Source: Pelagibius sp. Alg239-R121 (lineage in GTDB: Bacteria > Pseudomonadota > Alphaproteobacteria > Kiloniellales > Kiloniellaceae). From it: DNA of 64,000 nt. The position numbers and the translations under genes are program-made. Within the stretch, counting starts at the first letter, position 1. Each line of letters starts with the position of its first letter. Under the pieces are notes generated by a model. That model worked only from the letters and a program-made list of their open reading frames with translations, ran no database searches and was not told the DNA's origin. The stretch is taken from NCBI RefSeq assembly GCF_947331435.1, contig NZ_CAMZOF010000011.1:186001-250000 (forward strand), read 5' to 3'. This document shows, piece by piece, positions 22,868 through 63,573 of the stretch.

Positions 22868-25138
22868 TCAGATCTGCGGCTTCCAGCGCTTCAAGAGCAG
22901 AGAATTCGCCACCACGCTTACGCTGGAAAAGGCCATGGCCGCCCCGGCAAAAGCCGGGTTCAGAACGCCGGATACGGCAAGGGGAATGCAAACCAGATTG
23001 TAGATGAAAGCCCAGAAGAGGTTCTGCCGGATCTTCGAAAGCGTCGCCCGCGCCACTTGCAAGGCCGCCGGCACCAGGCGCGGATCCGGACGCATCAGCG
23101 TGATGCCCGCCGTCTCCATGGCCACGTCGCTGCCGCTGCCCATGGCGATCCCGACATCCGATTCCGCCAGCGCCGGTGCGTCGTTGACCCCGTCGCCGAT
23201 CATCGCCACCACCCGCCCCTCTGCCTTGAGGCGCGCGAGTTCGGCGACCTTGCCCTCCGGACGCAGCGGCCCAAGGGACCGGTCAAGTCCGAGGATCCCG
23301 CCGATGCGCGCGACCACGGCCTGATTGTCACCGCTCAGCATGAGGGTTTCGATCCCCGCGCTCTTCAATTGGGCGACCGCCTCCGCCGAGGTTTCGCGCA
23401 GCGGGTCGCTCAAGCCGAAGAGGCCGCGCAGCACGCCGTCCACCGCGATCAGCACCGGTGTCTCTCCCGCCCCTGCCATCGCGTCCTGCTGGCCCTTCAG
23501 AGCGCCCGTATCGATGCCGGCTTCCGCCATCATCTCGGGATTCCCGATCACCAGGTCCAGATCTTCGACCCGGGCCGCAATGCCCCGGCCCGGGCGGCTT
23601 TCGAAACCTTTCACCGGGGAAAGTTCCAGCGCCTTATCCGCCGCCAGCCGCAGAAAGGCCTTCGCCAGCGGATGCTCGCTGCCCTGCTGCGCAGAGGCCG
23701 CCAGCCGCAGCAGCGCGTCGCCCTCGCCCTTGCTCTCGCTATTGCCCTCGCCATCAAGGCTTTCAACGGTGGTGATCGCGGGGGCCCCCTCGGTCAGGGT
23801 GCCGGTCTTGTCGAAGGCCACGGCGGTCACTCGGTTGGCGCGCTCCAGGGCCTCGACATCCTTGATCAGAATTCCCGCCTTCGCTGCCGCGCCGGTCCCC
23901 GCGACAATCGCGGTCGGGGTCGCCAGTCCCAGGGCACAGGGACAGGCGATGACCAGCACGGAAACCGCCGCCACCAGCGCCGCCTCGAAGCCGGCTCCGG
24001 CCAGCAGCCAGCCGCCGAAGGTCGCGATCGCAATGAGCACGATGACCGGCACGAAGACCGCGCTGATGCGGTCGACCAGCTGCTGCACCGGCGCCTTGCC
24101 GCTTTGCGCCCGCTCGACCAGCCGGATGATCCGCGAAAGTGTGGAGTCCGCGCCGACCGCCTGCGCTTCCAGCTTCAACAGTCCGCTGCCGTTGATGGAC
24201 CCGCCGATCACGGCCGCGCCCCCGGCACGCAGAACAGGAAGGCTCTCGCCGGTCACCAGAGCCTCGTCCACTTCGCTGGCGCCTTCGGTGACCAGACCGT
24301 CGACGGGGATCTTCTCCCCCGGCTTGACGATGACCACATCGCCCCGGCGCACCTCGGCGATGGCCAGGACCGCTTCGATACCGCCGCGCACGATCCTTGC
24401 AGTTTCCGGGCGCAAAGCCATCAATTCCCGAATCGCCGAAGTCGTGCTCCGCTTCGCCCGCGATTCCAATACCTTACCGGCAAGGATCAGCGTGATCACG
24501 ATCACCGCTGCCTCAAAATAGAGGTGCCCTTCGGCTAGCGAAAGCGGGATCACGGACTCCGCCGACAGCAGAACTGCGAGGCTGTAAAAAAAGGCCGCCG
24601 AGGTGCCGAGCGCGACCAGAACGTCCATGTTCGCAGCACCGGAACGCAAGGCATTCCAGGCGCCGACGTAAAATCTGCGACCGATCCAGAACTGCACAGG
24701 GAGTGCCAAAGCAAATTGAAGCCACCCTGACAGCAGTTCACCGAAGCCCAGAAACATCAGGATCATCTGAGCGACGAACGGCAAGCTAAGCAGCGCCGAG
24801 ACCACGAGCTGACCCAGCTCGCCGGAAAGGCCAAAGATCGCCGTTCCGGACTCTAAAGCATTCCCAGTCCGCGCAGCGGGATCGACTGCGGCATAGCCGG
24901 CGTCGCGCACGCTCTCGAACAGGGTCGCGCGATCCACGGCACCGGTCACGTCAGCCTTTTCCAGGGCAAAGCTCACATCCGCCTTCAGCACGCCGGGCAC
25001 CTTGCGCAACGCCTTCTCCACGCGCTGAGCACAGTTGGCGCAAGTCATGCCCTCAATCGCGAAAACGTATGAACTCACGGTGTTATCCAATTTCTCTTTG
25101 GCGCGGGTACGACCCATAGGCCCTGCAGGAGCGAACAA
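22868..25138 (-). CDS. copA: copper-exporting P1B-type ATPase
   Basis: 756-residue inner-membrane Cu(I) pump. One N-terminal heavy-metal domain (MTCANC, Cys33 and Cys36), TGES (296-299), the membrane CPC (399-401), DKTGT with the phosphorylated Asp443, the SEHP histidine-proline (489-490), GDGVNDAP (648-655) and the last-helix MAFSSVSVVANS give the P1B-1 signature. The start is uncertain: TTG 25138 has GGAG six bases upstream, while ATG 25117 and GTG 25078 also precede the metal-binding domain. A MerR/CueR-type promoter lies directly upstream. No CueR gene is nearby. Confidence 0.95.
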   Translation of the reverse strand: MFAPAGPMGRTRAKEKLDNTVSSYVFAIEGMTCANCAQRVEKALRKVPGVLKADVSFALEKADVTGAVDRATLFESVRDAGYAAVDPAARTGNALESGTAIFGLSGELGQLVVSALLSLPFVAQMILMFLGFGELLSGWLQFALALPVQFWIGRRFYVGAWNALRSGAANMDVLVALGTSAAFFYSLAVLLSAESVIPLSLAEGHLYFEAAVIVITLILAGKVLESRAKRSTTSAIRELMALRPETARIVRGGIEAVLAIAEVRRGDVVIVKPGEKIPVDGLVTEGASEVDEALVTGESLPVLRAGGAAVIGGSINGSGLLKLEAQAVGADSTLSRIIRLVERAQSGKAPVQQLVDRISAVFVPVIVLIAIATFGGWLLAGAGFEAALVAAVSVLVIACPCALGLATPTAIVAGTGAAAKAGILIKDVEALERANRVTAVAFDKTGTLTEGAPAITTVESLDGEGNSESKGEGDALLRLAASAQQGSEHPLAKAFLRLAADKALELSPVKGFESRPGRGIAARVEDLDLVIGNPEMMAEAGIDTGALKGQQDAMAGAGETPVLIAVDGVLRGLFGLSDPLRETSAEAVAQLKSAGIETLMLSGDNQAVVARIGGILGLDRSLGPLRPEGKVAELARLKAEGRVVAMIGDGVNDAPALAESDVGIAMGSGSDVAMETAGITLMRPDPRLVPAALQVARATLSKIRQNLFWAFIYNLVCIPLAVSGVLNPAFAGAAMAFSSVSVVANSLLLKRWKPQI

Positions 25139-25262: not shown

Positions 25263-26081
25263 ATGATGATCGTCGCTCAAATCACCGATACCCATATCAG
25301 ACCTCCCGGATCCTTGGCCTATGGCCGGGTCGATACCGGCGCCTTTCTCGCGCAGGCGATTGCACATATCAATGCGCTCGACCCGGCACCCGACGTCGTT
25401 ATCTTGACCGGCGATGTTGCTGATACGGGCGCGGTCGAGGAATACGATCATGTCGTTAAACTCCTCGCTCCCTTGAAGGCGCCGCTGCTGGCCCTGCCCG
25501 GCAACCACGACCGGCGCGAAACTTTTCGAGCAGCCTTCGCCGGACGTATGGAGCTGCCATCAGGCAACGCACACCTCAGCTACGCCGTGGAGCGTTATCC
25601 TCTGCGCCTGGTCATGATCGATGACACAGTGCCGGGCAAGCCCCACGGTGAAGTAACCGCTGGGCATGTGGACTGGCTGGAAAACACACTGGCATCAGAA
25701 CCGGAAAAACCGACCCTCGTCGCCATGCATCATCCCCCCTTCCTTACCGGCATCGGGCATATGGACGTGCAAAACTGCCGGGGTGCCGAGGCCCTCGCGG
25801 AGGTCCTGTCCACACATCCGCAGGTGCTCGCCCTGGCCTGTGGTCATGTCCACCGCAACATCCTGACCCGCTTCGCCGGCAAGCCCGCTTCCATCTGTCC
25901 CAGTCAGGCTCACGCGGTTAGTCTCGCGCTTGGCCCGGGCGCGCCTTCCAGCTTTCACATGGATCCGCCCTCTCTACATCTACATGTCTGGCAGGACGAT
26001 GGTTCAAGGTTCGGAAGCCTGTTGATACATCAGAGTTTCATCGGCGACATCGATGGTCCGCATCCGTTTTTTATCGAGTGA
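25263..26081 (+). CDS. GpdQ/CpdA-like metallophosphodiesterase
   Basis: 272-residue calcineurin-type dinuclear metal phosphodiesterase. All five family motifs are present in order: DTH (residue 9), GDVAD, GNHD, MHHPP and GHVH. The overall pattern (TDTHIRPPGSLAYGRVDT near the N-terminus, MDVQNC, and the long C-terminal part after CGHVHR) resembles the glycerophosphodiesterase GpdQ more than cAMP-specific CpdA. The substrate could be a phosphodiester such as glycerophosphodiester or cyclic nucleotide. It is divergent from copA. Two adjacent ATGs make the start uncertain by one residue. Confidence 0.85.
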   Translation: MMIVAQITDTHIRPPGSLAYGRVDTGAFLAQAIAHINALDPAPDVVILTGDVADTGAVEEYDHVVKLLAPLKAPLLALPGNHDRRETFRAAFAGRMELPSGNAHLSYAVERYPLRLVMIDDTVPGKPHGEVTAGHVDWLENTLASEPEKPTLVAMHHPPFLTGIGHMDVQNCRGAEALAEVLSTHPQVLALACGHVHRNILTRFAGKPASICPSQAHAVSLALGPGAPSSFHMDPPSLHLHVWQDDGSRFGSLLIHQSFIGDIDGPHPFFIE

Positions 26082-26196: not shown

Positions 26197-27540
26197 ATGA
26201 TCGCAACACAGATCATAAATCGGGGGGTGCCAGAGGCAATCGTCGAACGACAAAAAGCCACGTTTATAAAGCGAAGAGTTAATTTCTCCGAAATCTCGGA
26301 GCGCAGCAAATTTAAGTCCTATCCTCTTGTGCTGTTCTTAGGCTGTCCTGATGCCTTATCTGACCAAATAGTTTTGGAAGCGGGTGCCTGTGGCACCCGG
26401 ATTGCCGCTGTTCTACCCTCGGACTGTAACCCGGATCCGCATGCGGTCTGGTCTCTGGTGACGCGCGGCTGCGAAGATGTTCAGATCTGGTCTGACGACA
26501 CCTGCGCCGACCGCATATCCAATCGCGTGTCGCGGTGGCTGAAGGTTGAATCCCGCGTACGTTCCCTGGATTTCCAAAAAGTCGCGCTCGGACAAAGTGT
26601 ATGCTGGATCCGGGCCATGCGCCGGATTGCTGAAGCAGCACTCTACTCCGACGCGCCTGTCTTGCTCACCGGCGAAACCGGGACTGGCAAGGAAGTCGTG
26701 GCGCGCGCCATGACCTACCTCATCTCAGGCGCGCCGGACACCATGAGAGTCGTGGATTGCGCCACCCTGTCACCCGACCTTATCGGCAGCGAACTTTTCG
26801 GCCATGAACGAGGCGCCTTCACGGGCGCGACTTCCATGCGTGAGGGCGCGATCGCCCTTGCCGATGGCGGCGTTCTGTTCCTGGACGAAATCGGTGAATT
26901 GCCCATTGACTTGCAGGCGCAGTTCCTGCGTGTGCTGCAGGAGGGTACCTATCGCCGGCTGGGTGGCAACACCTGGCGAGAAAGCCGGTTCCGCCTGATC
27001 TGCGCCACCAATCGGAATCTCGAGACTGCGATGCAGGAAGGGCGTTTCCGGTCCGATCTTTATCACCGAATTGCGGCGCTGACGGTTCATCTGCCACCAC
27101 TTGCAGACCGCCCCGAAGACATCATACCGCTTTCAACGCGCTTCGTGCGTGCCGCAGCCGGGCTGAACGCCGATCCGGTTTTCGATCCCATTGTGCGTGA
27201 CCACCTGCTTGACCTGTCTCCAGACGGCAACGTGCGGGCCTTGCAGCAGCTCTGCCGTCGTATCGCCGTCGGCTTGACCGGAACCGCCGTGTCAGTCGGA
27301 GATCTGATTGCAGCCCTCCCGGATACGCGGAATTCACGACCACCCAGCACCCCTCTGCACAAGGCTGTGGAGACGATGGTCGAACTTGGCCGCAGCCTCG
27401 CCGAGATCAAGGAAAGCGCCGCCGAACAGGCCGTAACGGCCGCGCTGCGATTGGAAGCCGGATCTGTTTCCAAGGCGGCCCGGCGACTGGGAATTACGCC
27501 GCGCGCGATCCATCTGCGGCGCAGCAAACATGATGTTTGA
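26197..27540 (+). CDS. sigma-54-dependent enhancer-binding regulator
   Basis: 447 residues. The N-terminal part (about 1-125) is a divergent sensing domain I do not recognise; it is receiver-sized but lacks an evident phospho-Asp pocket. The AAA+ domain follows with GETGTGKE (Walker A, 159-166), GAFTGA (206-211, the loop that contacts sigma-54) and LFLDEIGE (Walker B, 227-234). The C-terminus has a Fis-type helix-turn-helix (GSVSKAARRLGITPRAIHLR). It should remodel sigma-54 RNA polymerase at a -24/-12 promoter. A matching promoter lies at 33943-33958, in front of the convergent five-gene operon that ends 18 bp away. Confidence 0.9.
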   Translation: MIATQIINRGVPEAIVERQKATFIKRRVNFSEISERSKFKSYPLVLFLGCPDALSDQIVLEAGACGTRIAAVLPSDCNPDPHAVWSLVTRGCEDVQIWSDDTCADRISNRVSRWLKVESRVRSLDFQKVALGQSVCWIRAMRRIAEAALYSDAPVLLTGETGTGKEVVARAMTYLISGAPDTMRVVDCATLSPDLIGSELFGHERGAFTGATSMREGAIALADGGVLFLDEIGELPIDLQAQFLRVLQEGTYRRLGGNTWRESRFRLICATNRNLETAMQEGRFRSDLYHRIAALTVHLPPLADRPEDIIPLSTRFVRAAAGLNADPVFDPIVRDHLLDLSPDGNVRALQQLCRRIAVGLTGTAVSVGDLIAALPDTRNSRPPSTPLHKAVETMVELGRSLAEIKESAAEQAVTAALRLEAGSVSKAARRLGITPRAIHLRRSKHDV

Positions 27541-27557
27541 TGGACGTCGCACGTCCG

Positions 27558-28607
27558 TCACGACACCCAGGCTGTGATATCCCGTTTTACCCTGTCGGTT
27601 ATCCGTGTCGCAGATGACGAAATCACGTTGTCGTCATCGTCCAGCGTGCAGGCATGATTGATGCCGATCAGATTGCGGACGCCCTTCCAGCGCAGCCATA
27701 CCGGCCCGCCGCTCATTCCGGGTGCCACGTCATGATCAAGCGTCAACTGCGCAAAAATCGCAGGTGCCGAGCCGGCCGATCGGACGCGGTCGAAGGAATA
27801 CCATGGCACAGAGCCGCGATCTGCGGATCTGCAGGCAGAGAGGTCCGTTTGGGAGATCGATCCTCTTCTCGGACGACCCATGCACTTGTCTCCGGGATAA
27901 CCGACGGCATTGACCTTCACATTCTTAACCCGCTTGGGCGAAAGTACACGTATCCGCGTTCGTCCGCGATGCGTCGACACGCCCCAGTTTCCAAGCCGGC
28001 GGTTTTTGAGAGCCTTGAACCGCCGGCGCCCGATAGGGGCCGCCAGCTTGATCACGGCGTAGTCCAGGTGTGCAAACTGTCTGCCGCTCTTTTGCATGGC
28101 AGAGCGAAACAGCGAGTTTGTTCGAAAGGCTGTCCCCTGGCTCCACCCAAAGGGCATGGTATCGGCCGCGCGGCTTCTGCGACGTCGCCGGCGCCCATTC
28201 AGTCCGGGAATAACAACCACGGCACCGGCATCGATCGCGCGCAGGAATTTGCCGTCATCATCCTCCACGGCATCCATCAAAACGTGCGCCGCCGTCAGCA
28301 CGAACTGATCCGCGATCAACAGGCCGCTTCCTTCGGTGTAACTCACCGCGCCCGTATCCGGATCGACGTAAGCAACCTGAAGCTTGCAGAGCCAGCGGTT
28401 GGGAGCAGCCAGCATATGGCGCAAAGCGGCGCGGTCGTCATCGCCATCGTTGCAGATATCGAGCGTATTCGCTGGCGGCAGGCTGATCGCCGTCTCATCA
28501 AACCGAATACGGTCGGGAACCATCCCCTCGAACACCTCGTCCGGATTGTCCAGATCGACCCATTGATCTTCATCTTCAGCAGCGGCCTGTTTGTTTGCCT
28601 GTTGCAT
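27558..28607 (-). CDS. trypsin-fold serine protease (V8/S1B-like)
   Basis: 349 residues with a chymotrypsin-type triad: His108 (FVLTAAHVL), Asp182 (HLDYAVIKL) and Ser299 (APGMSGGPVW). An acidic N-terminal extension (residues 1-60) could be a propeptide; a run of arginines (GRRRRRRSR, 138-146) is inserted between the His and the Asp. No signal peptide is visible. The closest type I can name is the glutamyl endopeptidase-like S1B group, but specificity is not deducible. ATG 28607 (GGAGAC upstream) was preferred over an ATG six codons earlier that overlaps this site. Last gene of the sigma-54-linked operon. Confidence 0.85.
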   Translation of the reverse strand: MQQANKQAAAEDEDQWVDLDNPDEVFEGMVPDRIRFDETAISLPPANTLDICNDGDDDRAALRHMLAAPNRWLCKLQVAYVDPDTGAVSYTEGSGLLIADQFVLTAAHVLMDAVEDDDGKFLRAIDAGAVVVIPGLNGRRRRRRSRAADTMPFGWSQGTAFRTNSLFRSAMQKSGRQFAHLDYAVIKLAAPIGRRRFKALKNRRLGNWGVSTHRGRTRIRVLSPKRVKNVKVNAVGYPGDKCMGRPRRGSISQTDLSACRSADRGSVPWYSFDRVRSAGSAPAIFAQLTLDHDVAPGMSGGPVWLRWKGVRNLIGINHACTLDDDDNVISSSATRITDRVKRDITAWVS

Positions 28608-28671
28608 AACAATGTCTCCTTCCACGCGCCGGCGTCACCTACCAACACTTCGACGCCTCCAGACGAGTACC

Positions 28672-29850
28672 TCAGAGATCGAGCCTGCAACCGGGCCTGT
28701 GGCCGCAGCAGGCTTTTATCCTCGGGTATTTGAAATTGCAGAAGCGCAACATCGTCTCGGATTGGGGAAACTCGTGCGGATCGACACCTTTTTTCCGCTT
28801 CAGAACGGCCCACAGGGCGTTGAAGGCGTGCTTGACGAAGGATGCCTTACCGCCCGCATCCGAAACTGCTTTTAGCAACACTTTCAGGGTCCTCGGATTC
28901 TCGCGCTTCATTGTCTGTATCCTGCGGCGCATCTTTTGATAGCCGGTCGAGAAACCGTCCCGGATATTGAGTGGAATCCCCCTGGGTTTTCGCAACTCGT
29001 CCGACGATCTTTTTTTCCCGGCCGCAGTGTCAACCAGGGCGTAAGCCATGCCCATGGCAACTCCCCTGACAACGAAAGGCCGGTCCTGCCGCTCTGTATC
29101 AAACTGCCGAAACACCTGAAGGATAAATCCTGGTCCTATGGGATTAGCTGAGCCAACCAAGCCATCTACAGCCGCCTTTAAACCTTCAATCGCGAACTTC
29201 GCTATCTTCAGATTTCGCTTCCACGCAGAGTCCGAAGGCTTCTCGCCTAAAATCGCCCAAACCATCAGCTTGGCCGTGGCCGCATCGATCGGCGTTTTGG
29301 GCACCGAACGGGGCTTCGGACGTGGTTTAGGCCTCTTTTTGGGAGCCCGGCGCGCCCTAAGGAATATCTCCACCCGCCGGTTTAGGGCGCGGTCCCGGCG
29401 CGACTTCTGGCTGACACTGGTCGATGAGTAAGCTATTCCTCGCCAGGGTTCGTTGTCAGACCGGCCGTCCGTAACGATCCTTACGCGTTTGGCAACACCA
29501 GAGTCGAGAAGAAGAATCAACTCGTTTCCGGCATTACCTGCACGCTTTATGGCGCGATGTTCCAACTGCTTACGCGAGGTGCCGCGCCATGTCGAAGAAT
29601 GACCAACAATACGCACTTTGGTAATCGGCGTTGACGTCCGAAAACTTCGCGCGATCTTCGCCGCGATCCATTTCAAATGCGCCTGATGCTGCTTCGTCGG
29701 CCTGGCACCGAATGCCGGAAAGCAATGCAGCACGTAGGGATTTCCAGGCGTAACGCAGGAGCGCCCCCCCGACGCCTCCAACTCCGCTTCAGGCGCGACC
29801 AATCCATGAGCGGTATCGACGCCGGTTTCGGAATAGCTGTCATAAATCAT
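28672..29850 (-). CDS. OmpA-like domain protein of the sigma-54-linked operon
   Basis: 392 residues. An OmpA C-terminal-like domain spans about 40-165: KVRIVGHSSTWRG, a RA-rich helix, RVRIVTDGRSDNEPW and RALNRRVEIFLRARR, which matches the closing RNRRVEI motif of peptidoglycan-binding domains. After a basic, proline-rich linker (KKRPKPRPKPR) comes a helical domain (about 190-392) of unknown type. No signal peptide or lipobox is seen, so export, if any, is non-classical. ATG 29850 has AGGAGG five bases upstream. A 144-bp gap separates it from the preceding gene. Confidence 0.75.
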   Translation of the reverse strand: MIYDSYSETGVDTAHGLVAPEAELEASGGRSCVTPGNPYVLHCFPAFGARPTKQHQAHLKWIAAKIARSFRTSTPITKVRIVGHSSTWRGTSRKQLEHRAIKRAGNAGNELILLLDSGVAKRVRIVTDGRSDNEPWRGIAYSSTSVSQKSRRDRALNRRVEIFLRARRAPKKRPKPRPKPRSVPKTPIDAATAKLMVWAILGEKPSDSAWKRNLKIAKFAIEGLKAAVDGLVGSANPIGPGFILQVFRQFDTERQDRPFVVRGVAMGMAYALVDTAAGKKRSSDELRKPRGIPLNIRDGFSTGYQKMRRRIQTMKRENPRTLKVLLKAVSDAGGKASFVKHAFNALWAVLKRKKGVDPHEFPQSETMLRFCNFKYPRIKACCGHRPGCRLDL

Positions 29851-29994
29851 ATCAGCCTCCTAGGAATTCGAAGACCAGAGTGCTCGAGTTGTGGGCTTAA
29901 AGAGCTGTCTTAAAATCAAGCTCGATTGGCTCGGCTTCCGGGATCGCGGTCATCTAAATACCCGACCCCGGAAACCTTGCGCACTGCACCGGTC

Positions 29995-31863
29995 TTACTT
30001 GGCAGGTGCAGCAATCTTCGCCTGTGCGTTCAGCAGGGCTGCCGGACTGGTTCTGCGGCGTTCGAGCAGCGACTGATTGGCCTGGTCACCGTCAGCGGAC
30101 AGATCGACGCCTGTGACGGCACGGTAGGCATTGTTGTAGGCCTGCAGTTCCTGGCGCCAATACTGAGCCCAGACCATGGCGACATTTTCGTCAATCTCGT
30201 CGCTCCAGTTACCGAAGCGGATCGACAGCAGAATCATCTCTCCGTACACAGCTAGATCCTGGAAGTGCCGGATCGAGGCGCCGCGCCAACCCATCAGATC
30301 TCGCATCTGCTCGACTGCCGGCATCCACTCTTCCGGATAGGGGACCATTGCGCGCCTGCTCAGGAAATCGCGCGTTTCGGGGCGGGCCAGCAGCCACTGT
30401 TCGATCAGCATTTCCTGCCGCGCCGTCCAGGGTAACTCTCCGTACTGGTTATGGGCGCCTTGGGCGAGCAACAGATGACACTCCTTCAGCGCATTGAGCA
30501 GCGGATAACCGTCAGGCACCTTTGTGGTATCGGCTTGCTCCTTAAAAAAGATGGAGACCCGATGAAGCAGACTGTGGAACGAGGGCAAGAAACCGATGCG
30601 GCTATCCGCCGGCTCAATCTTCGGAACAGCTTTGCCGACGATGGTAAATCCGTAGTGATGATCGTATTCGTAGGCGCGCCGGGCCAGCGTGAGCCGATTG
30701 TGTTCGTCCTGGACATACCCCCAGATGATGTTGCTGAGCGGGCGCAGGGGATCGAGGTTCATAGAGGCGAGCGGATTGCCGCCTGCCGCTGTCCTCTTCA
30801 GAGTGCGGTTCTGGAACCGCATACTGATCGCTTTCAGTGTCTGAACCAGCATCCCTTCTTCATTCCAATAGGACCAGATCAGTTCGAGCAGAACCGGTGG
30901 TGCAATCCGGGATTTCAAGATGCCGTAACAGCCCTCGGTCGGGGCGCCCGGCGGCTTGAGCGGAATTTCCGAGAGTCTGTCCCGGATCACCGCAAAATAA
31001 GGAAAGGTGCGCGTCTCGTCGTCCAAACTGGTCAGATAAGCGTCTCGATTGCTCTCCAGATCAGCTTTCGCCTCTTCGTCGGATGAACCCGCCAGCTGTG
31101 GCAGCCGGCGCCTTTCCTCCTTGCCGTCAAAAGCAATGTCTTGGTGGGCTATGCCGGTCTCGTGCATCAGGAATGCTTCAGTCGCCTTTTTCAGAATTTC
31201 ATAGGCGTCGGTACCCCGGTAGCGCAGCTCGCCGAGGTCGCGCGCCGGGTCGCTGGAGGTCTCGGGGACTTTTCCGTCGCACATCACCGCATCGACGAAC
31301 TTTTTGTAATTGTTGAAGCCGATCGCTTCGGCCCGGTTGCGGATAATGGCCCATAGAGCCTTTTGCGGCCCCAACGGCGGATGTTGCCGCTGCAGACGAA
31401 TTGCGTCACCGGGCAGACCCTGCTTGAGAGCCGCAACGCCCGCGTCGATTTTTTCGAGCACTTCGTTGGGCAATGCCGCCGGTGTCACCTCGATGCTATG
31501 GCTCAGCACAATGGGGTCGCCAGCCGTATCCGGCGATGGCGGCGTTGCCGCGCGGCTGCGCTTTTGGCCCCGGGTGGAAGATGGCTTTGGCGGCGTGCCA
31601 GGATCGGCGGACCCCTGAGTGATCGTCGCACGGATGATATAGGATGCCGCCATCTCCGGCGGCGATGTCCATACGGTTTTCAGACCCGCCTTGCTGTCCG
31701 GATCAAAACCACCCCGATCAGGATCGGCAGACCAGGCCACCACAAAATTCACGTCTTCCGTCGTTTTGACCTCGAGTGTAACGGCACCGTTGGGAACCTG
31801 GGTGCGGTGCGAGGCAACGAGTTTGAAGTTTTCGGCGACAAACTTTCCATTTTCGCTAGGCAT
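29995..31863 (-). CDS. 622-residue protein of unknown family
   Basis: Large soluble protein. The N-terminal 70 residues look beta-rich (VPNGAVTLEVKTTEDVNFVV), followed by a low-complexity linker (PGTPPKPSSTRGQKRSR) and a long mostly helical region with many aromatic residues. The part around GYVQDEHNRLTLARRAYEYD and GFLPSFHSLLHRVSIFF looks structured and conserved in character. No signal peptide, membrane helix or catalytic motif is recognised. ATG 31863 has GGAGG eight bases upstream; earlier in-frame starts overlap the preceding gene. It lies 22 bp after the metallopeptidase-like gene. Confidence 0.75.
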   Translation of the reverse strand: MPSENGKFVAENFKLVASHRTQVPNGAVTLEVKTTEDVNFVVAWSADPDRGGFDPDSKAGLKTVWTSPPEMAASYIIRATITQGSADPGTPPKPSSTRGQKRSRAATPPSPDTAGDPIVLSHSIEVTPAALPNEVLEKIDAGVAALKQGLPGDAIRLQRQHPPLGPQKALWAIIRNRAEAIGFNNYKKFVDAVMCDGKVPETSSDPARDLGELRYRGTDAYEILKKATEAFLMHETGIAHQDIAFDGKEERRRLPQLAGSSDEEAKADLESNRDAYLTSLDDETRTFPYFAVIRDRLSEIPLKPPGAPTEGCYGILKSRIAPPVLLELIWSYWNEEGMLVQTLKAISMRFQNRTLKRTAAGGNPLASMNLDPLRPLSNIIWGYVQDEHNRLTLARRAYEYDHHYGFTIVGKAVPKIEPADSRIGFLPSFHSLLHRVSIFFKEQADTTKVPDGYPLLNALKECHLLLAQGAHNQYGELPWTARQEMLIEQWLLARPETRDFLSRRAMVPYPEEWMPAVEQMRDLMGWRGASIRHFQDLAVYGEMILLSIRFGNWSDEIDENVAMVWAQYWRQELQAYNNAYRAVTGVDLSADGDQANQSLLERRRTSPAALLNAQAKIAAPAK

Positions 31864-31885
31864 CGTCCTTTTCCTCCAATATGCG

Positions 31886-33163
31886 TCAGTGCGAACAACC
31901 GCAGTGCTTGGCGAATTGCCGCTGAATCGCCCAAGTTCTGAGCAAATCGCCGGCGACACGTGCTTCGTCTTCCGGCGAGATCTGACTGTCCGCCCGTGCC
32001 TGTCCCAAGACCGCCAAAGCGGCAGTAGGCTTGAGGCGCGTAAGGCGGCGCGCAGACAGTTTCGTTTTCATCGCGAGAGACCGCAGGGTTTTCGGCTGCC
32101 GGTCGGCGAGCGGAAATATTTCACGCAGACTGCGCCCGCGAAGCGCGGCAGGACGGTGGCTCACCAACAAGGCCACGAAATCCGGGATCGATTGCTCTAC
32201 GTCCCTAAAGACCTCCCGGATCCTCGGGTCCAATCCACCCGGCGGGTAGAGCCGCGACCAGACCCGAAGCAAATCATCCCATTGCGGGTCGGGGTAAAGC
32301 GTCCGTCCCAAAGTGGCGCTCAACCGCACCCGGACCCAGGGCGGCGGATGGGGATCGTCGAGAGAGAGCCTGAAGATGAAGGCGCGCGGCAGAGCCACAA
32401 CACCGATCATGCCGTAGGTCGCGCCGATTCCGAGTTGTGCGACCGACCAATAGTCCGCCACGATTTCGGAGATCCAGCGTTCCCAGAGTTTCCAGGCGGA
32501 CTGCCGGCGGCCCGTCGCCTCGTGCTTGGCCTGAAGAGCTGGTCGAAGCGAGTCGACCAATCCCAGCAATGCGGCCCCCTGATGTCCCACCTCGTGGACC
32601 AGGGAACCTCCCACGCTGCTTCCAACCATACGCTCCCTGGGCACGCGGATGATCGCCACCGGGTTCAAGCCGCCGCCGGGAAGCCTGGTCCGCGCCCGGC
32701 GTATCGCGGCGCCAATGCCCCGATCCAGATAGCAAAGCAGAGGCGGCGACCGATAGGGCGCCTGGGATATCGCAAGGGCGTCGTCGGCAAGAACGTCGAG
32801 ACCCGCAAGCCACACGCCAAATTCATGCTCGCTTCGCTGTGTCAGGACATCCGCGAACAGATCGAACTGCGTCAGCAGTTTTTGAAACTGCAAGCGAACC
32901 ACCGTGAAACGGCGTTGTGCGACATGATCTTCCGCCGCCTTCCCTCCTGGCCCATTAAGCCAGGCGAGAAGCTCCGACAGCATGCCCGTGAGCCGGTGCT
33001 TTGCACTTTCCAGAAAGATCTCGATCTGTTGGCGTGCCGCCACCGCCGGCGCAGCTGCCCCGACCATCGGCATGTGCAAAGCAAACGGCTTGACTTGCTC
33101 GAGGCGGGTCATCAAGGCACCCGCATCGTGGGTCAACAGCCGGGCAGCGGCGGGGGAGACCAT
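31886..33163 (-). CDS. putative zinc metallopeptidase (HExxH)
   Basis: 425 residues. SLVHEVGHQ gives His190, Glu191 and His194 of a zincin motif, and Glu233 with Asp237 in WISEIVADYW is well placed as third ligand (EhxAD type). Other parts are helical with no signal peptide or membrane helix, and the protein ends in HCGCSH. I do not know the family by name. It starts four bases after the stop of the acidic/cationic protein gene, so it is co-transcribed and probably coupled. Confidence 0.7.
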   Translation of the reverse strand: MVSPAAARLLTHDAGALMTRLEQVKPFALHMPMVGAAAPAVAARQQIEIFLESAKHRLTGMLSELLAWLNGPGGKAAEDHVAQRRFTVVRLQFQKLLTQFDLFADVLTQRSEHEFGVWLAGLDVLADDALAISQAPYRSPPLLCYLDRGIGAAIRRARTRLPGGGLNPVAIIRVPRERMVGSSVGGSLVHEVGHQGAALLGLVDSLRPALQAKHEATGRRQSAWKLWERWISEIVADYWSVAQLGIGATYGMIGVVALPRAFIFRLSLDDPHPPPWVRVRLSATLGRTLYPDPQWDDLLRVWSRLYPPGGLDPRIREVFRDVEQSIPDFVALLVSHRPAALRGRSLREIFPLADRQPKTLRSLAMKTKLSARRLTRLKPTAALAVLGQARADSQISPEDEARVAGDLLRTWAIQRQFAKHCGCSH

Positions 33164-33167
33164 TGCC

Positions 33168-33890
33168 TCACACGCCCATCAGGACAATACGGCGTCCGCG
33201 ACGAATCCATCGTCCCGCATTGCGCATTCCTTTTCGACCGACACCGGCACCTCGAGCCAACCCGGGTGCATGCCGGCGCACGGCCTGCTGTACCGCGCCA
33301 CGCGCCGCTTCATCGTCCTCGATTTCTTCTGGCATATCGGCGGCTGCAAGTGCCGCTTCGCCGGTCATTCGAACGACCCGGCGGGCCACTTCGAATTCCT
33401 GATCCTCAGGACTCATGCCTTCGAGTTCGAGACCAAATGCCCTGCCCGCGCCGGATGCCAGGCGTCCGCCGATCGCAGCCCCAACAGGACCGCCGAAGAA
33501 ACCGCCTGCAGCGCGGCCTGCGCCCTTTAAGGCACGCCGTGCAACCGAGCGAAGTCCGCGACGTAAACGCCGCCCGAGCCGGCCCCGGATCGCCCGCCTT
33601 GCCCTTTTTTTGAGCTTGCGAAATCCGCGCCTTAACGCACGGCCAAAGAACATTTCGAGCTCTGCGTCATCCGAGACTTCGAGCAATTCCAGAGCGAGCT
33701 CCATTTCCTCGCCTTCATCGAAAACGGACGTACCGGCAGAGCTTTCCCACTCTCCTTCCAACTCGCCCAATTCTTCTTCGTCGTCTTCGAATTCGTACTC
33801 GCCGAGTTCTTCTTCGTCTTCGAACTCCTCTTCATATTCGAGCTCGTCATCGAAGTCGGCTTCGAGTCGCGTTCGATCCAAGTTATGCAT
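33168..33890 (-). CDS. acidic-cationic glycine-rich protein, first gene of the sigma-54-linked operon
   Basis: 240 residues with extreme charge segregation. Residues 10-80 are dominated by Asp/Glu. Residues 84-123 are dominated by Arg/Lys (RALRRGFRKLKKRARRAIRG). Residues 123-150 form a glycine-zipper-like stretch (GAGRAAGGFFGGPVGAAIGG). A helical region follows, then an Arg-rich C-terminus ending RWIRRGRRIVLMGV. Such glycine/alanine stretches insert into membranes in several toxins; the acidic N-terminus could mask the cationic part. That role is inference. ATG 33890 has GGAGATAAG upstream, and a sigma-54 promoter lies 53 bp further. Confidence 0.75.
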   Translation of the reverse strand: MHNLDRTRLEADFDDELEYEEEFEDEEELGEYEFEDDEEELGELEGEWESSAGTSVFDEGEEMELALELLEVSDDAELEMFFGRALRRGFRKLKKRARRAIRGRLGRRLRRGLRSVARRALKGAGRAAGGFFGGPVGAAIGGRLASGAGRAFGLELEGMSPEDQEFEVARRVVRMTGEAALAAADMPEEIEDDEAARGAVQQAVRRHAPGLARGAGVGRKGMRNAGRWIRRGRRIVLMGV

Positions 33891-33942
33891 GACTTATCTC
33901 CATGAATGCGCAAACGAACCAAGGGGAATGCACAGATCACGG

Positions 33943-33958
33943 AGCAAGCATCATGCCA
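33943..33958 (-). promoter_or_regulatory. sigma-54 (-24/-12) promoter
   Basis: On the minus strand the sequence TGGCATGATGCTTGCT matches the sigma-54 consensus TGGCACG-N4-TTGCW at every fixed position but one (T for C), with exact spacing between GG and GC. Transcription would begin about 43 bp before the ATG at 33890. The rest of the spacer up to the MarR gene (33959-34196) shows no gene. Confidence 0.75.
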
Positions 33959-34196: not shown

Positions 34197-34646
34197 TTAA
34201 AAGGCCTTTGGATCGAGATGAGCAGCCCAGCGCTCAAGCAGGCTGCGCAAGGCAGCGGCGTCCTGTTTGCCGAGCACTTTGACAGCTTCCTGATCCAGAG
34301 CCTCGAAGACGGACACGGTGTCCTGAACCAGATCCCTGCCCCGGCGCGTAAAGCAGACGCGCATGGCACGACCGTCTGTTTCATCCGGCTGCCGAGTCAC
34401 ATATCCCTGCGCCTCGAGTTCTTGAACCAGTTTGCTGACCGCCTGTTTTGAAATTCTCAGACGCTCGGCGAGTGCCGTCACGCGGCTGCCCTCGGCCTCG
34501 ATGTGCACCAGCAGGGATTTCTGCGCAGGCGGCAGGTTATGGCTAACATTTCCCCGCTCTTCGAGCCGGCGCTGGTAAGCCATGGACAAGCGCGTCACCA
34601 GCCGGCCGATAAGCCGCGAGCGACGCTGATCAAGATTCTCCTGCAT
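34197..34646 (-). CDS. MarR-family transcriptional regulator
   Basis: 149 residues with the winged-helix MarR fold (SRVTALAERLRISKQAVSKL, then YVTRQPDETDGRAMRVCFT with the wing Asp/Arg). It is divergent from a pair of SDR genes. Two near-identical palindromes lie in the shared promoter region, pointing to autoregulation and control of the SDRs. The inducer is unknown. Confidence 0.9.
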   Translation of the reverse strand: MQENLDQRRSRLIGRLVTRLSMAYQRRLEERGNVSHNLPPAQKSLLVHIEAEGSRVTALAERLRISKQAVSKLVQELEAQGYVTRQPDETDGRAMRVCFTRRGRDLVQDTVSVFEALDQEAVKVLGKQDAAALRSLLERWAAHLDPKAF

Positions 34647-34716: not shown

Positions 34717-34735
34717 TAGTCAACCAAATTGACTA
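34717..34735. promoter_or_regulatory. MarR-type operator 2
   Basis: TAGTCAACCAAATTGACTA has the extended half-sites TAGTCAA / TTGACTA. It lies 66 bp before the SDR start and is 42 bp centre to centre (four helical turns) from operator 1, so both sites face the same side of the DNA. Confidence 0.7.
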
Positions 34736-34800
34736 TATGGCCGGTTCACTGGGACTGTCGATTTTCATCAATTCGCCCCAAGGCCAACAGGGATCTCCCT

Positions 34801-35622
34801 ATGTATCAAAGAGTTATTGAACCCCTCCGGCCCTCCCATCACGCCGGGCTGAAGAACCGGGCGGCAGGCGCAGGGACCGTAGGTTCGCGGTTGCATTCTC
34901 GTCAGTGGGCGGGCAAGCGTGTCGTGATCACCGGTGGAACCGACGGCATTGGCAGGCACCTCGCGAAGAAACTGGCAATGCGTGGCGCCGACGTACTGAT
35001 CGTCGGCAGACGCGCCGAGACCGAAGTCGAACCCCTGCTGACACCTCGACAAAGTTACGTTCGTGCAGATCTCTCTCACGCGGATGGCCCGACGCAGGTG
35101 ACGGAAGCCCTGACCCGGATCGGCTGGCAGCAGGTCAACATGCTGGTGCATAACGCGGCGGTCGGATGGATCGGCCCATCGGAGCAGCAGTCGGCGGACT
35201 CCGTAGACGAGTTACTTGTGACCAACCTGCTGAGTCCCGTTGCCTTGACTAGCCTCTTGCTGCCGCATCTTCGGTGGGCACGCGGCAAGATTGTCTTCAT
35301 AGGTTCGGTCGCGGCCGGGGTTCCCTGCCCTTCCTTTGCAGTCTACGGCGCGACCAAGTCGGCTCTAACGGGATTCGCGCGCAGCCTCCGGCTGGAACTG
35401 GCCGGAGAGGTTGGTGTGCAAATTATCCATCCCGGGCCGACCCGCACCGGATTTCATGCCAAATCGGGGGTTCGATCTCACGGCCTCGCCCGCCTTTTCA
35501 TGGATCCCGAGGGCGTTGCAGAGAGAGTCTTGCGGGCAATGCAGAGCAACCGAGCGGTCTCGACACTCGGCTACAAAGCCTTGCTCGGGGAATGGGTCCG
35601 TCATGCCGGAGGGCTGATGTGA
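34801..35622 (+). CDS. short-chain dehydrogenase/reductase
   Basis: 273 residues. After a 40-residue extension the Rossmann fold begins with VVITGGTDGIGRHLA; NAAVG and the catalytic YGATK follow. The C-terminal part (VLRAMQSNRAVSTLGYKALLGEW) is longer than in minimal SDRs, as in enzymes that act on lipid-like substrates. ATG 34801 was chosen because the upstream frame crosses the operators. It overlaps the next SDR by four bases and is divergent from MarR, so probably MarR-controlled. Confidence 0.85.
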   Translation: MYQRVIEPLRPSHHAGLKNRAAGAGTVGSRLHSRQWAGKRVVITGGTDGIGRHLAKKLAMRGADVLIVGRRAETEVEPLLTPRQSYVRADLSHADGPTQVTEALTRIGWQQVNMLVHNAAVGWIGPSEQQSADSVDELLVTNLLSPVALTSLLLPHLRWARGKIVFIGSVAAGVPCPSFAVYGATKSALTGFARSLRLELAGEVGVQIIHPGPTRTGFHAKSGVRSHGLARLFMDPEGVAERVLRAMQSNRAVSTLGYKALLGEWVRHAGGLM

Positions 35623-36398
35623 GAATTGTTGTTACCGGAGCCGCGAGTGGCCTGGGTGCCGCGTTGTCGACGCGCTTTCTCTCGGCCCGCCATACGGTCC
35701 TGGGGATCGACTGTGCCTGGCCGCAGGACCAACACGAAGAGACCAACGTTCCCAACGCCATAATGCGGTATCGGGCCGATCTCGCCGATCGCACTGCGAT
35801 CGCCGGACTGGTTGAAAGGATCTGCGAGGCGGGCGCCATTGATGTGGTCATTCACAACGCCGGAATCAATGCGGCGGGACCCTTCGAAAATCTTGACCAA
35901 CCTGCGATGCACCGGATTATCGCCGTCAACCTGCGCGCCCCGATGCTCATGACTGCGGCGCTCCTGAAACAGGGCCTCATCTCGGAAGGCGGAAGCCTCG
36001 TCTTCGTCGGATCGCTCAGTTCCTACCTCAGCTATCCGGGGGCGGCGACCTATGCAGCAAGCAAAGACGGACTGCTGGCCTATGCCAAGAGCCTGACGCC
36101 TGCGCTCGCACGCCGCCGGATCGCCTGCCTCTCAGTCCTGCCCGGACCGCTCGATACGGCACATGCCCGTATACATGCCCCGCCAGGCGCAGATGAACGC
36201 GGCCGGCTGGACCCGGCAGCAGCCGCGGACGAGATCTACCGGGCGGTTCAGAGCAAACGGGAAAGCCTGGTGCCGGGTTGGCGCGCCAAGCTCTATAGCG
36301 GGATCGGCATCGCGTCTCCCAGGCTGGCCGAACGCATGATGCGTAAAATCATCTTCCTGCCGTTGCGCGATGCGGCACGTGCACAGCCCCTGTCCTGA
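35619..36398 (+). CDS. short-chain dehydrogenase/reductase
   Basis: 259 residues. The GTG start at 35619 overlaps the upstream SDR stop (GTGA), with GGAGG upstream; the fold begins at once with IVVTGAASGLGAAL. NAGIN and the catalytic YAASK are present. The C-terminal extension (RLAERMMRKIIFLPL) is amphipathic and may attach to membrane. As the second SDR of the pair it may act on the same substrate; this is not known. Confidence 0.85.
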   Translation: MRIVVTGAASGLGAALSTRFLSARHTVLGIDCAWPQDQHEETNVPNAIMRYRADLADRTAIAGLVERICEAGAIDVVIHNAGINAAGPFENLDQPAMHRIIAVNLRAPMLMTAALLKQGLISEGGSLVFVGSLSSYLSYPGAATYAASKDGLLAYAKSLTPALARRRIACLSVLPGPLDTAHARIHAPPGADERGRLDPAAAADEIYRAVQSKRESLVPGWRAKLYSGIGIASPRLAERMMRKIIFLPLRDAARAQPLS

Positions 36399-58443: not shown

Positions 58444-58475
58444 AAAAAAAACCGGCTGCAAGTCGCAACCGGTTT
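58444..58475 (-). terminator. attenuator between SAM-II riboswitch and metZ
   Basis: On the minus strand AACCGGTTGC and GCAGCCGGTT form a ten-pair stem with one G-U, a five-base loop, then TTTTTTT. It starts about 20 bases after the riboswitch and lies 100 bp before the metZ start. It fits a SAM-dependent transcription terminator. Confidence 0.8.
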
Positions 58476-58492
58476 GGATTCCCAACACGGCC

Positions 58493-58545
58493 CTTTTAGC
58501 GACTTTTTTAACGTGGCTGCAAGCCGGCCGGCCCAAATCACCACG
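58493..58545 (-). ncRNA. SAM-II riboswitch
   Basis: On the minus strand the element reads CGTGGTGATTTG, a loop, GCTTGCAGCCACGTTAAA, a short spacer, then GCTAAAAG. GTGG pairs with CCAC (P1), and the GCTAAA end supplies the pseudoknot strand, as in the known SAM-II (metA) class of alphaproteobacteria. It lies about 150 bp upstream of metZ and is followed by an intrinsic terminator. The remaining spacer up to the rhodanese gene presumably holds the promoter. Confidence 0.9.
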
Positions 58546-58748
58546 ACGAGTTTGGTAGCACGCCGAACCAAGACGGGCAATGGAAAATGATTGCGGCCCG
58601 AAATCGTCACAAATCCGACTGGGGTCTCATCAGAATCACCTCGAAGTCGGCGCTTAGTTGATGCACTCGAACATGAGAACCGCCTGGTAATCATACGAAG
58701 CAGGAATTGGAACGCTCTGTTTACCGAGTCACTGGAAACAATCTGGCG

Positions 58749-63215: not shown

Positions 63216-63257
63216 AATTCTCTCCCTTCCGTCTCACCCGACGGCATAAAGTGTTGG

Positions 63258-63432
63258 CCTCTCAGATGGCAGGTCTCCTGGCTTGCGGATCTTCGGTCCA
63301 GCTCCGGCCTTCCCGGGATGAAAACACACATCCCAGTGGCGCCAGTGGAGCTCCCTAGCCGCTCACAGTTGCGGGGGCAGCCACGGTCTTGGTCCCTGAT
63401 GGGTACGCCGCACCGTGTTCCCTTTTCATCCG
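63258..63432 (-). ncRNA. cobalamin riboswitch of hupE
   Basis: On the minus strand the conserved parts appear in order: AAAAGGGAACACGGTG, GGCTGCCCCCGCAACTGTGA, CCACTGG, CCCGGGAAGG, GATCCG and the B12 box AAGCCAGGAGACCTGCC (63268-63284). This is the full adenosylcobalamin aptamer. It ends about 45 bases before hupE. No clear terminator lies between, so control may be at translation. Confidence 0.95.
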
Positions 63433-63573
63433 TCATCGCGTTCGCTTTGACGAAACCATCTGGGCGCAAGCTAAACGCGGTTTTTCTCGCCGTAAAGCGT
63501 AACTTCCCGCCGGCCTTGTGGAAGATCTGATCAAAGATTCGGGAGTTCGAAGAGCGGTAGAACCACCGCGTGC

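What the first reader, a model, noticed from the sequence alone, without database searches (positions are those of the whole stretch)
26197..33958. Sigma-54-controlled five-gene protease / cationic-protein locus that matches no system I know
The sequence shows an enhancer-binding protein with GAFTGA next to an opposing operon whose only visible promoter is a near-consensus sigma-54 site (16 of 17 informative positions, exact spacing). The operon combines an acidic/cationic glycine-rich protein, an HExxH protein, a 622-residue unknown, an OmpA-like protein without signal peptide, and a trypsin-fold protease. Sigma-54 regulators often sit beside their own targets. Inference: the proteases process or release the cationic protein, giving an inducible antagonism, lysis or envelope-remodelling module.
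Basis: partly seen in the sequence, partly recalled or inferred. Interest (0 to 1): 0.85.

Follow-up and report, generated by a model that had tools for sequence, protein, structure and literature searches.

The report
Sigma-54-locked tagged-effector gene island
The window holds one member of a widespread bacterial gene island for which no description was found: a sigma-54-controlled set of three unknown core proteins plus swappable cell-wall-cutting, protein-cutting and nucleic-acid-altering enzymes, which in the actinomycetes examined carries the very transcription factor it needs.

Summary
A GAFTGA enhancer-binding protein (R) faces a five-gene operon: A (acidic/cationic), B (HExxH), C (622 aa), H (weakly OmpA-like), G (trypsin-like), behind a sigma-54 site (11 of 12 core positions). 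Comparison turns it into a recognisable system. Of 84 records selected by C, from at least seven phyla, 70 have A-B-C in that order; R is present in 66 of 68 with 8 kb of room. A, B and C match no curated family over cut-off; models of B and C match no solved fold. H and G are not core: they sit in a cargo slot that elsewhere holds peptidoglycan hydrolases, proteases, GIY-YIG nucleases and APOBEC-type deaminases. Many cargo proteins share a short N-terminal tag (FExxPF; 38 of 97 versus 3 of 803 other genes; motif chosen after seeing them), without a hydrophobic N-terminus. Sigma-54 control looks intrinsic: in 394 actinomycete genomes the only three clear RpoN genes lie in the only three copies of this locus. 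Best reading: a self-contained sigma-54-gated effector island, A/B/C handling tagged cargo. Delivery route and target are inferred.

The parts
26197..27540 (+). R: sigma-54 enhancer-binding protein, divergent N-terminal domain + AAA+ (GAFTGA at 26812-26829) + Fis-type HTH; convergent with the operon
   Evidence: Pfam PF00158 2.8e-56, HTH_8 1.6e-5; homologue in 70 of 84 records, convergent on C in 69 of the 70
27558..28625 (-). G: trypsin-like serine protease, cargo-slot gene; His, Asp and Ser motifs present; no tag match
   Evidence: PF13365 2.6e-9; family in 9 of 84 records; motifs by simple patterns, tag absent
28672..29850 (-). H: weakly OmpA-like protein with a basic C-terminal part; cargo-slot gene; no tag match
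   Evidence: NCBIfam OmpA-type hit 3.2e-5, below cut-off; weak similarity (23.9 bits, E 0.008) to the OmpA part of a Nitrosospira cargo protein; no family relatives in the other records; tag absent
29995..31863 (-). C: core protein of unknown fold; N-terminal beta-sandwich and all-helical conserved domain
   Evidence: no Pfam, NCBIfam or PHROG hit at E 0.1, no PADLOC hit at 0.01; 39-row AlphaFold model pLDDT 77.8, pTM 0.69; no PDB or viral fold match at E 0.001
31886..33163 (-). B: core gluzincin-like protein, HEVGH (32582-32596) with invariant Glu233 and Asp237
   Evidence: invariant residues; model pLDDT 87.6, pTM 0.86, nearly all helical; no PDB match (best E 0.97)
33168..33890 (-). A: core protein with acidic N-terminus (38 D/E in 90 aa), basic Gly/Ala-rich middle, conserved C-terminal GRWxRxGxxIxLxGV
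   Evidence: all hits of the family lie within this locus in 23 of 23 host genomes (places compared with the ranges)
33943..33958 (-). sigma-54 (-24/-12) promoter of the operon, TGGCATGATGCTTGCT
   Evidence: score reached by 1% of 200 random segments of the window; similar sites upstream of A in many other loci

Best explanation
This is one copy of a widespread, self-contained gene island that is switched on as a unit by sigma-54 and its own enhancer-binding protein R. Turned on, it makes a locus-specific glycine/alanine-rich protein (A), a gluzincin-like probable metalloprotease (B), a largely helical protein of unknown fold (C), and a changeable set of effector enzymes that attack peptidoglycan, proteins or nucleic acids. 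Many effectors, and some A proteins, share a short N-terminal tag (FExxPF or similar) in place of a signal peptide. Proposed mechanism: the tag routes effectors to a particle, pore or export complex built with A; B cuts tags or A's acidic pro-region during maturation; C is a scaffold or adaptor. Effectors then act outside the producing cell's cytoplasm, on a competitor or host. Shown by computation: gene set, order, promoter, tag, cargo variety, linkage to sigma-54. Inferred: protease activity of B, role of the tag, export, target. In the window the cargo is G and H, which lack a clear tag.
For: A-B-C order in 70 of 84 records with R in 66 of 68 having at least 8 kb downstream, 33 of 35 without Oxalobacteraceae. 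Sigma-54 site upstream of the first A: 40 of 74 loci score at least 10/12, 33 of 74 beat 95% of random segments of their own locus, 3.7 expected; without Oxalobacteraceae 17 of 42. In 394 actinomycete genomes clear RpoN (over 80 bits) occurs in 3 and protein C in the same 3, with RpoN beside A. In the five locus-borne actinomycete RpoN the RpoN box is intact in 5 of 5; a site of 11-12 of 12 stands directly before A in 4 of 5. Cargo: PG_binding_1, Amidase_2, Glucosaminidase, DUF2272, VanY, M74, muramidase, trypsin, papain, GIY-YIG, APOBEC-type deaminase. Tag in 38 of 97 cargo, 3 of 803 other genes, 0.76 expected after shuffling; without Oxalobacteraceae 18 of 63 against 3 of 420. No hydrophobic N-terminal stretch in 38 of 38 tagged cargo and 49 of 49 A proteins with the MHxxDR start (crude test). 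7 of 23 hosts lack both VipB and eCIS_core.
Against: No secretion channel or energy-providing ATPase was recognised in the core; A of the window has no clear transmembrane helix. No immunity gene was noticed next to nuclease or deaminase cargo (looking over; not tested). The tag is missing in 59 of 97 cargo ORFs and in the window's own G and H, and its pattern was chosen after looking at these proteins. 34 of 74 loci have no site scoring 10 of 12 upstream of A, among them all four Bacteroidota (6-8 of 12). The activator-interacting domain of the actinomycete RpoN passes its Pfam cut-off in only 1 of 5. 38 of the 80 scanned loci are Oxalobacteraceae by genus name, so counts are not independent.
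Confidence: 0.5

Rival explanations
1. Programmed self-lysis or altruistic release: the operon is induced in a few cells, the peptidoglycan hydrolases and proteases act from inside, and A helps to open the membrane, releasing enzymes or public goods.
For: Cargo rich in murein hydrolases; tagged cargo without hydrophobic N-termini; sigma-54/EBP control; no immunity genes noticed.
Against: Murein hydrolases need access to the periplasm; no clear transmembrane stretch in the window's core proteins; deaminase and nuclease cargo and the PG-binding domains on cargo fit action on others better.
Confidence: 0.2
2. Intracellular defence or programmed death (anti-phage): proteases, nucleases and deaminases are armed inside the cell, like the multi-protease conflict systems of multicellular bacteria.
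For: Trypsin-like peptidases and varied effectors also in those conflict systems (PMC7159879, passages only); patchy distribution, 4 of 391 good genomes of the phylum.
Against: PADLOC gives the window genes only AAA+ hits of R and a 26-residue hit of G; PG_binding_1 in 27 of 71 scanned proteins does not fit phage defence; no match of B in phage records, none of C in viral contigs.
Confidence: 0.1
3. Nutrient scavenging or wall remodelling: a sigma-54 operon secreting hydrolases to feed on dead neighbours; amidohydrolase E, M20 peptidase and PLP enzyme D process the products.
For: E (Amidohydro_2), D (Aminotran_1_2) and an M20 peptidase beside the cargo; D in 61 and E in 51 of 84 records.
Against: Deaminase and GIY-YIG cargo; shared tag instead of Sec signals; window and nearest relative L005 lack D and E.
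Confidence: 0.12
4. Large-protein modification system of RiPP type: the tag is a leader for modification by D, E or C, and B removes it.
For: Short shared N-terminal tag, a probable protease, and enzymes of families seen in RiPP clusters (RiPP parallel recalled).
Against: D and E are missing from many records; cargo are large enzymes; no core peptide recognised.
Confidence: 0.08

Closest known systems
Polymorphic toxin systems (Zhang et al. 2012, PMC3482391; start of abstract and passages seen)
   Same: Exchangeable effectors of the same broad kinds (deaminase, nuclease, peptidase, PG-binding, OmpA) with a shared N-terminal part linked to trafficking
   Different: Here the effectors are separate genes in one locus with a tag of only about 6-12 residues, and no cognate immunity gene was noticed; the held text has 0 occurrences of 'NtrC' and of 'sigma factor'
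Multi-protease/NTPase conflict systems of multicellular prokaryotes (Kaur et al. 2020, PMC7159879; passages seen)
   Same: Trypsin-like peptidases and varied effectors under tight control
   Different: 0 occurrences of sigma54/sigma-54, one general mention of NtrC; A, B, C not recognised in the passages seen
T6SS and extracellular contractile injection systems
   Same: Can deliver PG hydrolases and OmpA/PG-binding effectors; T6SS genes are often sigma-54-controlled (recalled)
   Different: No such gene among the window's six; other loci were not scanned for sheath or tube genes; 7 of 23 hosts lack both VipB and eCIS_core
FleQ/PspF/RtcR-type enhancer-binding proteins
   Same: R's AAA+ domain scores best with these, below their family cut-offs
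   Different: No N-terminal domain found by Pfam in the window's R; the RtcR hits do not cover the CARF part; N-termini diverge strongly among R
Canonical RpoN
   Same: Locus-borne RpoN keeps core-binding and DNA-binding domains and the RpoN box
   Different: Sits beside A/B/C, is the only clear RpoN of its genome, and lies on long branches away from the RpoN of 12 other hosts

Membership tests
Sigma-54/EBP-controlled operon | EBP with sigma-54-contacting loop GAFTGA and AAA+ domain | tested here: met
   some relatives have GAFTNA or GSFTGA
Sigma-54/EBP-controlled operon | -24/-12 promoter in front of the operon | tested here: met
   transcript start not mapped
Sigma-54/EBP-controlled operon | Host encodes RpoN | tested here: met
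   29 of 30 hosts, window genome included; the exception, Actinomadura L012, also lacks R in the stretch held
Polymorphic toxin system | Variable toxin domain behind a constant trafficking part | tested here: inconclusive
   varied effectors and shared tag, but tag in 38 of 97 only and effectors as separate genes
Polymorphic toxin system | Adjacent immunity gene | not tested
   none noticed by eye in the gene maps
T6SS effector locus | Depends on T6SS (sheath TssC/VipB in the genome) | tested here: not met
   VipB in 10 of 23 hosts; several hosts are draft genomes
eCIS effector locus | Depends on eCIS (marker eCIS_core in the genome) | tested here: not met
   eCIS_core in 11 of 23 hosts; marker only, structural genes not searched
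Known anti-phage defence system | Hits PADLOC system proteins | tested here: not met
   six window genes and one D and one E: only AAA+ hits of R and a 26-residue LmuA hit of G
Gluzincin metallopeptidase (B) | HExxH plus a downstream Glu zinc ligand | tested here: met
   H190, E191, H194 and E233 conserved; zinc and activity not testable
Gluzincin metallopeptidase (B) | Zincin fold | tested here: inconclusive
   confident model, no PDB match at E 0.001, best E 0.97

The most novel reading that the evidence does not exclude
A new class of effector-deployment machine: A, B and C assemble or mature a carrier into which cargo is sorted by a short N-terminal tag, the whole locked to sigma-54 so firmly that the island has brought its own sigma-54 into Actinomycetota, a phylum that a 2025 survey concluded effectively lacks a functional RpoN.
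Probability: 0.4. Interest if true: 0.92.

Novelty: categorically new. Interest (0 to 1): 0.8.

Why it matters
Three protein families with no curated model over cut-off (and, for B and C, no solved fold relative) form a conserved unit across at least seven phyla, next to effectors ranging from murein hydrolases to APOBEC-type deaminases. If it exports tagged proteins it is a new delivery route, and the tag could be tested directly. Separately, it offers a concrete explanation for rare actinomycete RpoN genes, a class that a survey dismissed (PMC12316311): in our two samples each clear one is part of this island, mostly next to near-perfect sigma-54 promoters, which makes sigma-54 activity in actinomycetes directly testable.

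Tried and rejected
Rejected: (1) the five genes as a fixed unit, since H and G are not conserved partners. (2) A T6SS reading of the OmpA hit. (3) A CARF/RtcR reading of R: hits cover the AAA+ part and HTH only. (4) My own first idea that Chloroflexota loci also bring their own sigma-54: Chloroflexota carry RpoN in 56 of 156 genomes but C in 2 of 156, so the claim is kept to Actinomycetota; one Anaerolineae genome does have RpoN beside an R homologue. In the tree the group labelled 'locus' therefore mixes five actinomycete locus genes with four Chloroflexota genes not shown to be in the locus, and long branches make their placement unsure. (5) L029's neighbour that I noted as a likely RpoN is not one.

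Led nowhere: viral-contig scan, phage records, PDB sequence search for C and B, fold searches, ten paper searches. Of these one search gave the directly relevant paper PMC12316311, which searches returned again. No description of the locus was found, but the library is open-access only and the terms were mine.

Limits: one search reported 149 relatives and kept 80; all gene-map counts are on 84 records (80, three plasmid loci and the window), all chosen because they hold C. Genes were called by a simple ORF rule, so some starts are too long. Cargo ORFs are same-strand ORFs of at least 130 aa between C and R (within 7 kb of C where no convergent R is held), A proteins only from 330 aa. The tag pattern was written after reading those ORFs; its p-values are descriptive. 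One search tested 74 of 84 loci (others had under 250 bases upstream) and mis-set the operon head in at least two (L014, L071). Searches scanned 71 proteins: 70 of the 97 cargo ORFs, chosen by hand to drop near copies and doubtful ORFs, plus L006:13488-13862; 25 of 28 families were shown. The Oxalobacteraceae list was made by hand from genus names. Of the weaker Sigma54_DBD hits, the 4 (20-23 bits) lie in genomes without C; the 19 (20-25 bits, partial) were taken as chance and not checked further. In the eight relatives of G my simple Asp and Ser patterns did not match; three of them do match Pfam trypsin models. Whether the actinomycete RpoN named in PMC12316311 lie in this locus could not be checked.
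Full report
OBSERVATION. R is a sigma-54 activator by sequence (Sigma54_activat 2.8e-56, HTH_8 1.6e-5). The minus-strand genes are closely spaced (4, 22, 144, 46 bp). The sigma-54 site TGGCATGATGCTTGCT starts 68 bases before the A start codon and is the only hit in the window at up to one mismatch, with 1.53 expected by chance. It scores 11 of 12 core positions and 12 of 17 in the long consensus as I recall it, not 16 of 17. The window's A, B and C have no hit better than E 0.05 in Pfam, NCBIfam or PHROGs, and none at 0.01 in PADLOC; one of 33 B sequences hits DUF533 at 0.0055. G is a trypsin-fold protease with His, Asp and Ser motifs in place. H is only weakly OmpA-like.

CO-OCCURRENCE. C is absent from the 97 relatives searched beside the window genome (single-sequence query) and found in 4 of 391 good genomes of the phylum, the window's included, so it is patchy. 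A plasmid search found C in four records of Rhizobium (2), Ensifer and Paraburkholderia; the three fetched have A-B-C in the same order and an R homologue converging from the other end. A scan of a collection of 84,980 species genomes gave 149 relatives of C, of which the best 80 were kept. On 84 records (80, 3 plasmid loci, window) the counts are B 80, A 77, R 70, D 61, E 51, G 9; C is in all by construction. A-B-C in that order is found in 70 of 84; the rest are contigs cut short, missed ORFs, or true variants such as B-rpoN-A-C in Nocardiopsis. The common plan is A(1-2)-B-C-D-cargo-E-<R, where D is a PLP enzyme and E an Amidohydro_2 protein. R is present in 66 of 68 records with at least 8 kb after C, and 69 of 70 R genes converge on the operon; without Oxalobacteraceae R is in 33 of 35. 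Pairwise distances of B, C, R, D and E correlate (Spearman 0.57-0.85), not corrected for species trees. The nearest relative of the window by C, L005 (Ectothiorhodospiraceae MAG; 59% in the alignment, 56% in the scan), is A-B-C-Amidase_2-trypsin-<R, likewise without D or E. In 23 of 23 host genomes every hit of the A profile lies within this locus (compared).

SIGMA-54. Upstream of the first A, 40 of 74 testable loci have a site scoring at least 10 of 12, and 33 beat 95% of random segments of their own locus (3.7 expected; binomial 1.7e-23); without Oxalobacteraceae 21 and 17 of 42. All four Bacteroidota score 8 or less. Of 30 host genomes 29 have RpoN; the exception, Actinomadura L012, also lacks R in the stretch held. 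In Nocardiopsis terrae, Nocardiopsis NRRL B-16309 and Streptomyces nymphaeiformis the only Sigma54_DBD hit of the genome lies inside the locus. A sample of 394 genomes of the class of the Streptomyces, drawn by the tool, gave 7 with Sigma54_DBD hits, of which 3 are clear (over 80 bits, the others 20-23); C occurs in 3 of the same 394, the same three. One of them was the centre of the draw; without it, 2 of 2 in 393, p about 1.3e-5. In 297 genomes of the order of Nocardiopsis, 3 of 22 hits are clear. The five distinct clear RpoN of both samples all sit beside A in the locus. Those five proteins have core-binding and DNA-binding domains over cut-off and an intact ARRTVxKYR box; the activator-interacting domain passes its cut-off in one (L071), which is a point against full function. 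Sites of 11-12 of 12 stand right before A in L008, L053, L071 and L134, and before B in L008 and L053; in L135 such sites exist but the calls of A and RpoN overlap, so their position is not clear. A 2025 survey (PMC12316311, section on phylogenetic distribution read) found 4 RpoN in 173 Actinomycetota, set one aside as misclassified and concluded that the phylum effectively lacks a functional RpoN. Control: Chloroflexota often have RpoN without the locus (56 versus 2 of 156).

CARGO AND TAG. Between C and R lie 97 same-strand ORFs by the rule given under limits. Pfam on 71 proteins (70 of the 97 and one more) gave PG_binding_1 27, Amidase_2 9, Trypsin_2 8, OmpA 4, M20 4, GIY-YIG 3, Glucosaminidase 2, DUF2272 2, VanY 2, APOBEC-type deaminase 2, and single muramidase, M74, papain, beta-lactamase-like and HEAT proteins. 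The two deaminases (L034 and L059, Bacteroidota; APOBEC_N 6.3e-10 and 3.4e-7) have HAE...PCxxC. F[END]xxP[FL] lies in the first 110 residues of 38 of 97 cargo ORFs and of 3 of 803 other genes (one of which, L006, looks like cargo too); also in 15 of 157 A, and in 0 of 80 B, 84 C, 71 R, 61 D and 51 E; 0.76 of 97 expected on shuffling. Fisher 7e-37, and 1e-14 without Oxalobacteraceae (18 of 63 against 3 of 420); the motif was chosen on these data, so both are descriptive. It sits on different folds: PG-binding amidase, PG-binding glucosaminidase, VanY, trypsin, PG-binding + A. None of 38 tagged cargo proteins nor of 49 A proteins with the MHxxDR start has a hydrophobic N-terminal stretch by a crude test, against 95 of 803 other genes. 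The window's G and H have no tag.

CORE PROTEINS. B: H190-E191-x-x-H194, E233 and D237 are conserved throughout; the model is confident and helical but for two strands (pLDDT 87.6, pTM 0.86) and has no PDB relative (best E 0.97). C: conserved helical part after a variable beta-sandwich (pLDDT 77.8, pTM 0.69); the sandwich resembles PKD/Ig domains only weakly, and nothing reaches E 0.001. A: 38 acidic residues in the first 90, a basic Gly/Ala-rich middle (20 K/R and 27 G/A in 65 residues), and a C-terminal W-R pattern in 126 of 157. A's structure was not predicted.

MECHANISM. The most economical reading is an inducible effector island: R and sigma-54 turn on A, B, C and cargo together; the shared tag marks cargo and some A proteins for one destination; B is the likely maturation protease; C is a scaffold or adaptor. 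Cargo acting on peptidoglycan without Sec signals must reach it by a non-Sec route or by lysis. Independence from T6SS and eCIS is indicated by 7 of 23 hosts lacking both marker families (several are draft genomes). Export, the tag's role and B's activity are inferences.

NOVELTY. No paper found describes the locus (ten searches, listed under Tried and rejected; passages of PMC7159879, PMC12419801 and PMC3482391). Absence from this open-access library is not proof. I rate it categorically new for its core and control; the effector types themselves are known.

Noticed in passing
window 63251-63475 (-): Cobalamin riboswitch (132.7 bits).
   Followed up: no
window 58475-58554 (-): SAM-alpha riboswitch (79.6 bits), pointing to an alphaproteobacterial host.
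   Followed up: no
window 22868-25138 (-) and 25263-26081 (+): By eye a heavy-metal P-type ATPase and a metallophosphoesterase-like gene beside R; no domain search done.
   Followed up: no
window 34197-34646 (-) and 34729-36398 (+): By eye a MarR-type regulator divergent from two short-chain dehydrogenase-like genes; no domain search done.
   Followed up: no
L034:12583-13674 and L059:12604-13668: APOBEC/SNAD-type deaminases of Bacteroidota as cargo of the island; possible link to the bacterial roots of AID/APOBEC enzymes.
   Followed up: partly
L138:3263-6017 (Anaerolineae genome G514): An R homologue and an RpoN gene 22 bases apart on a 6.9-kb contig in which A, B and C were not found.
   Followed up: partly
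L134 (G797, actinomycete): A strongly diverged copy of the island (C 424.7 bits against 684.5 and 747.8 in the other two) still with RpoN, two A, B, C and R in order.
   Followed up: partly
L002:6905-8209 (-), L079:4974-6596 (-), L084:4935-6242 (-): Divergent A-like proteins encoded upstream on the opposite strand in rhizobial loci.
   Followed up: no
G000 contigs C8 and C2: The window's own genome also has T6SS sheath genes and three eCIS_core hits, on other contigs.
   Followed up: no
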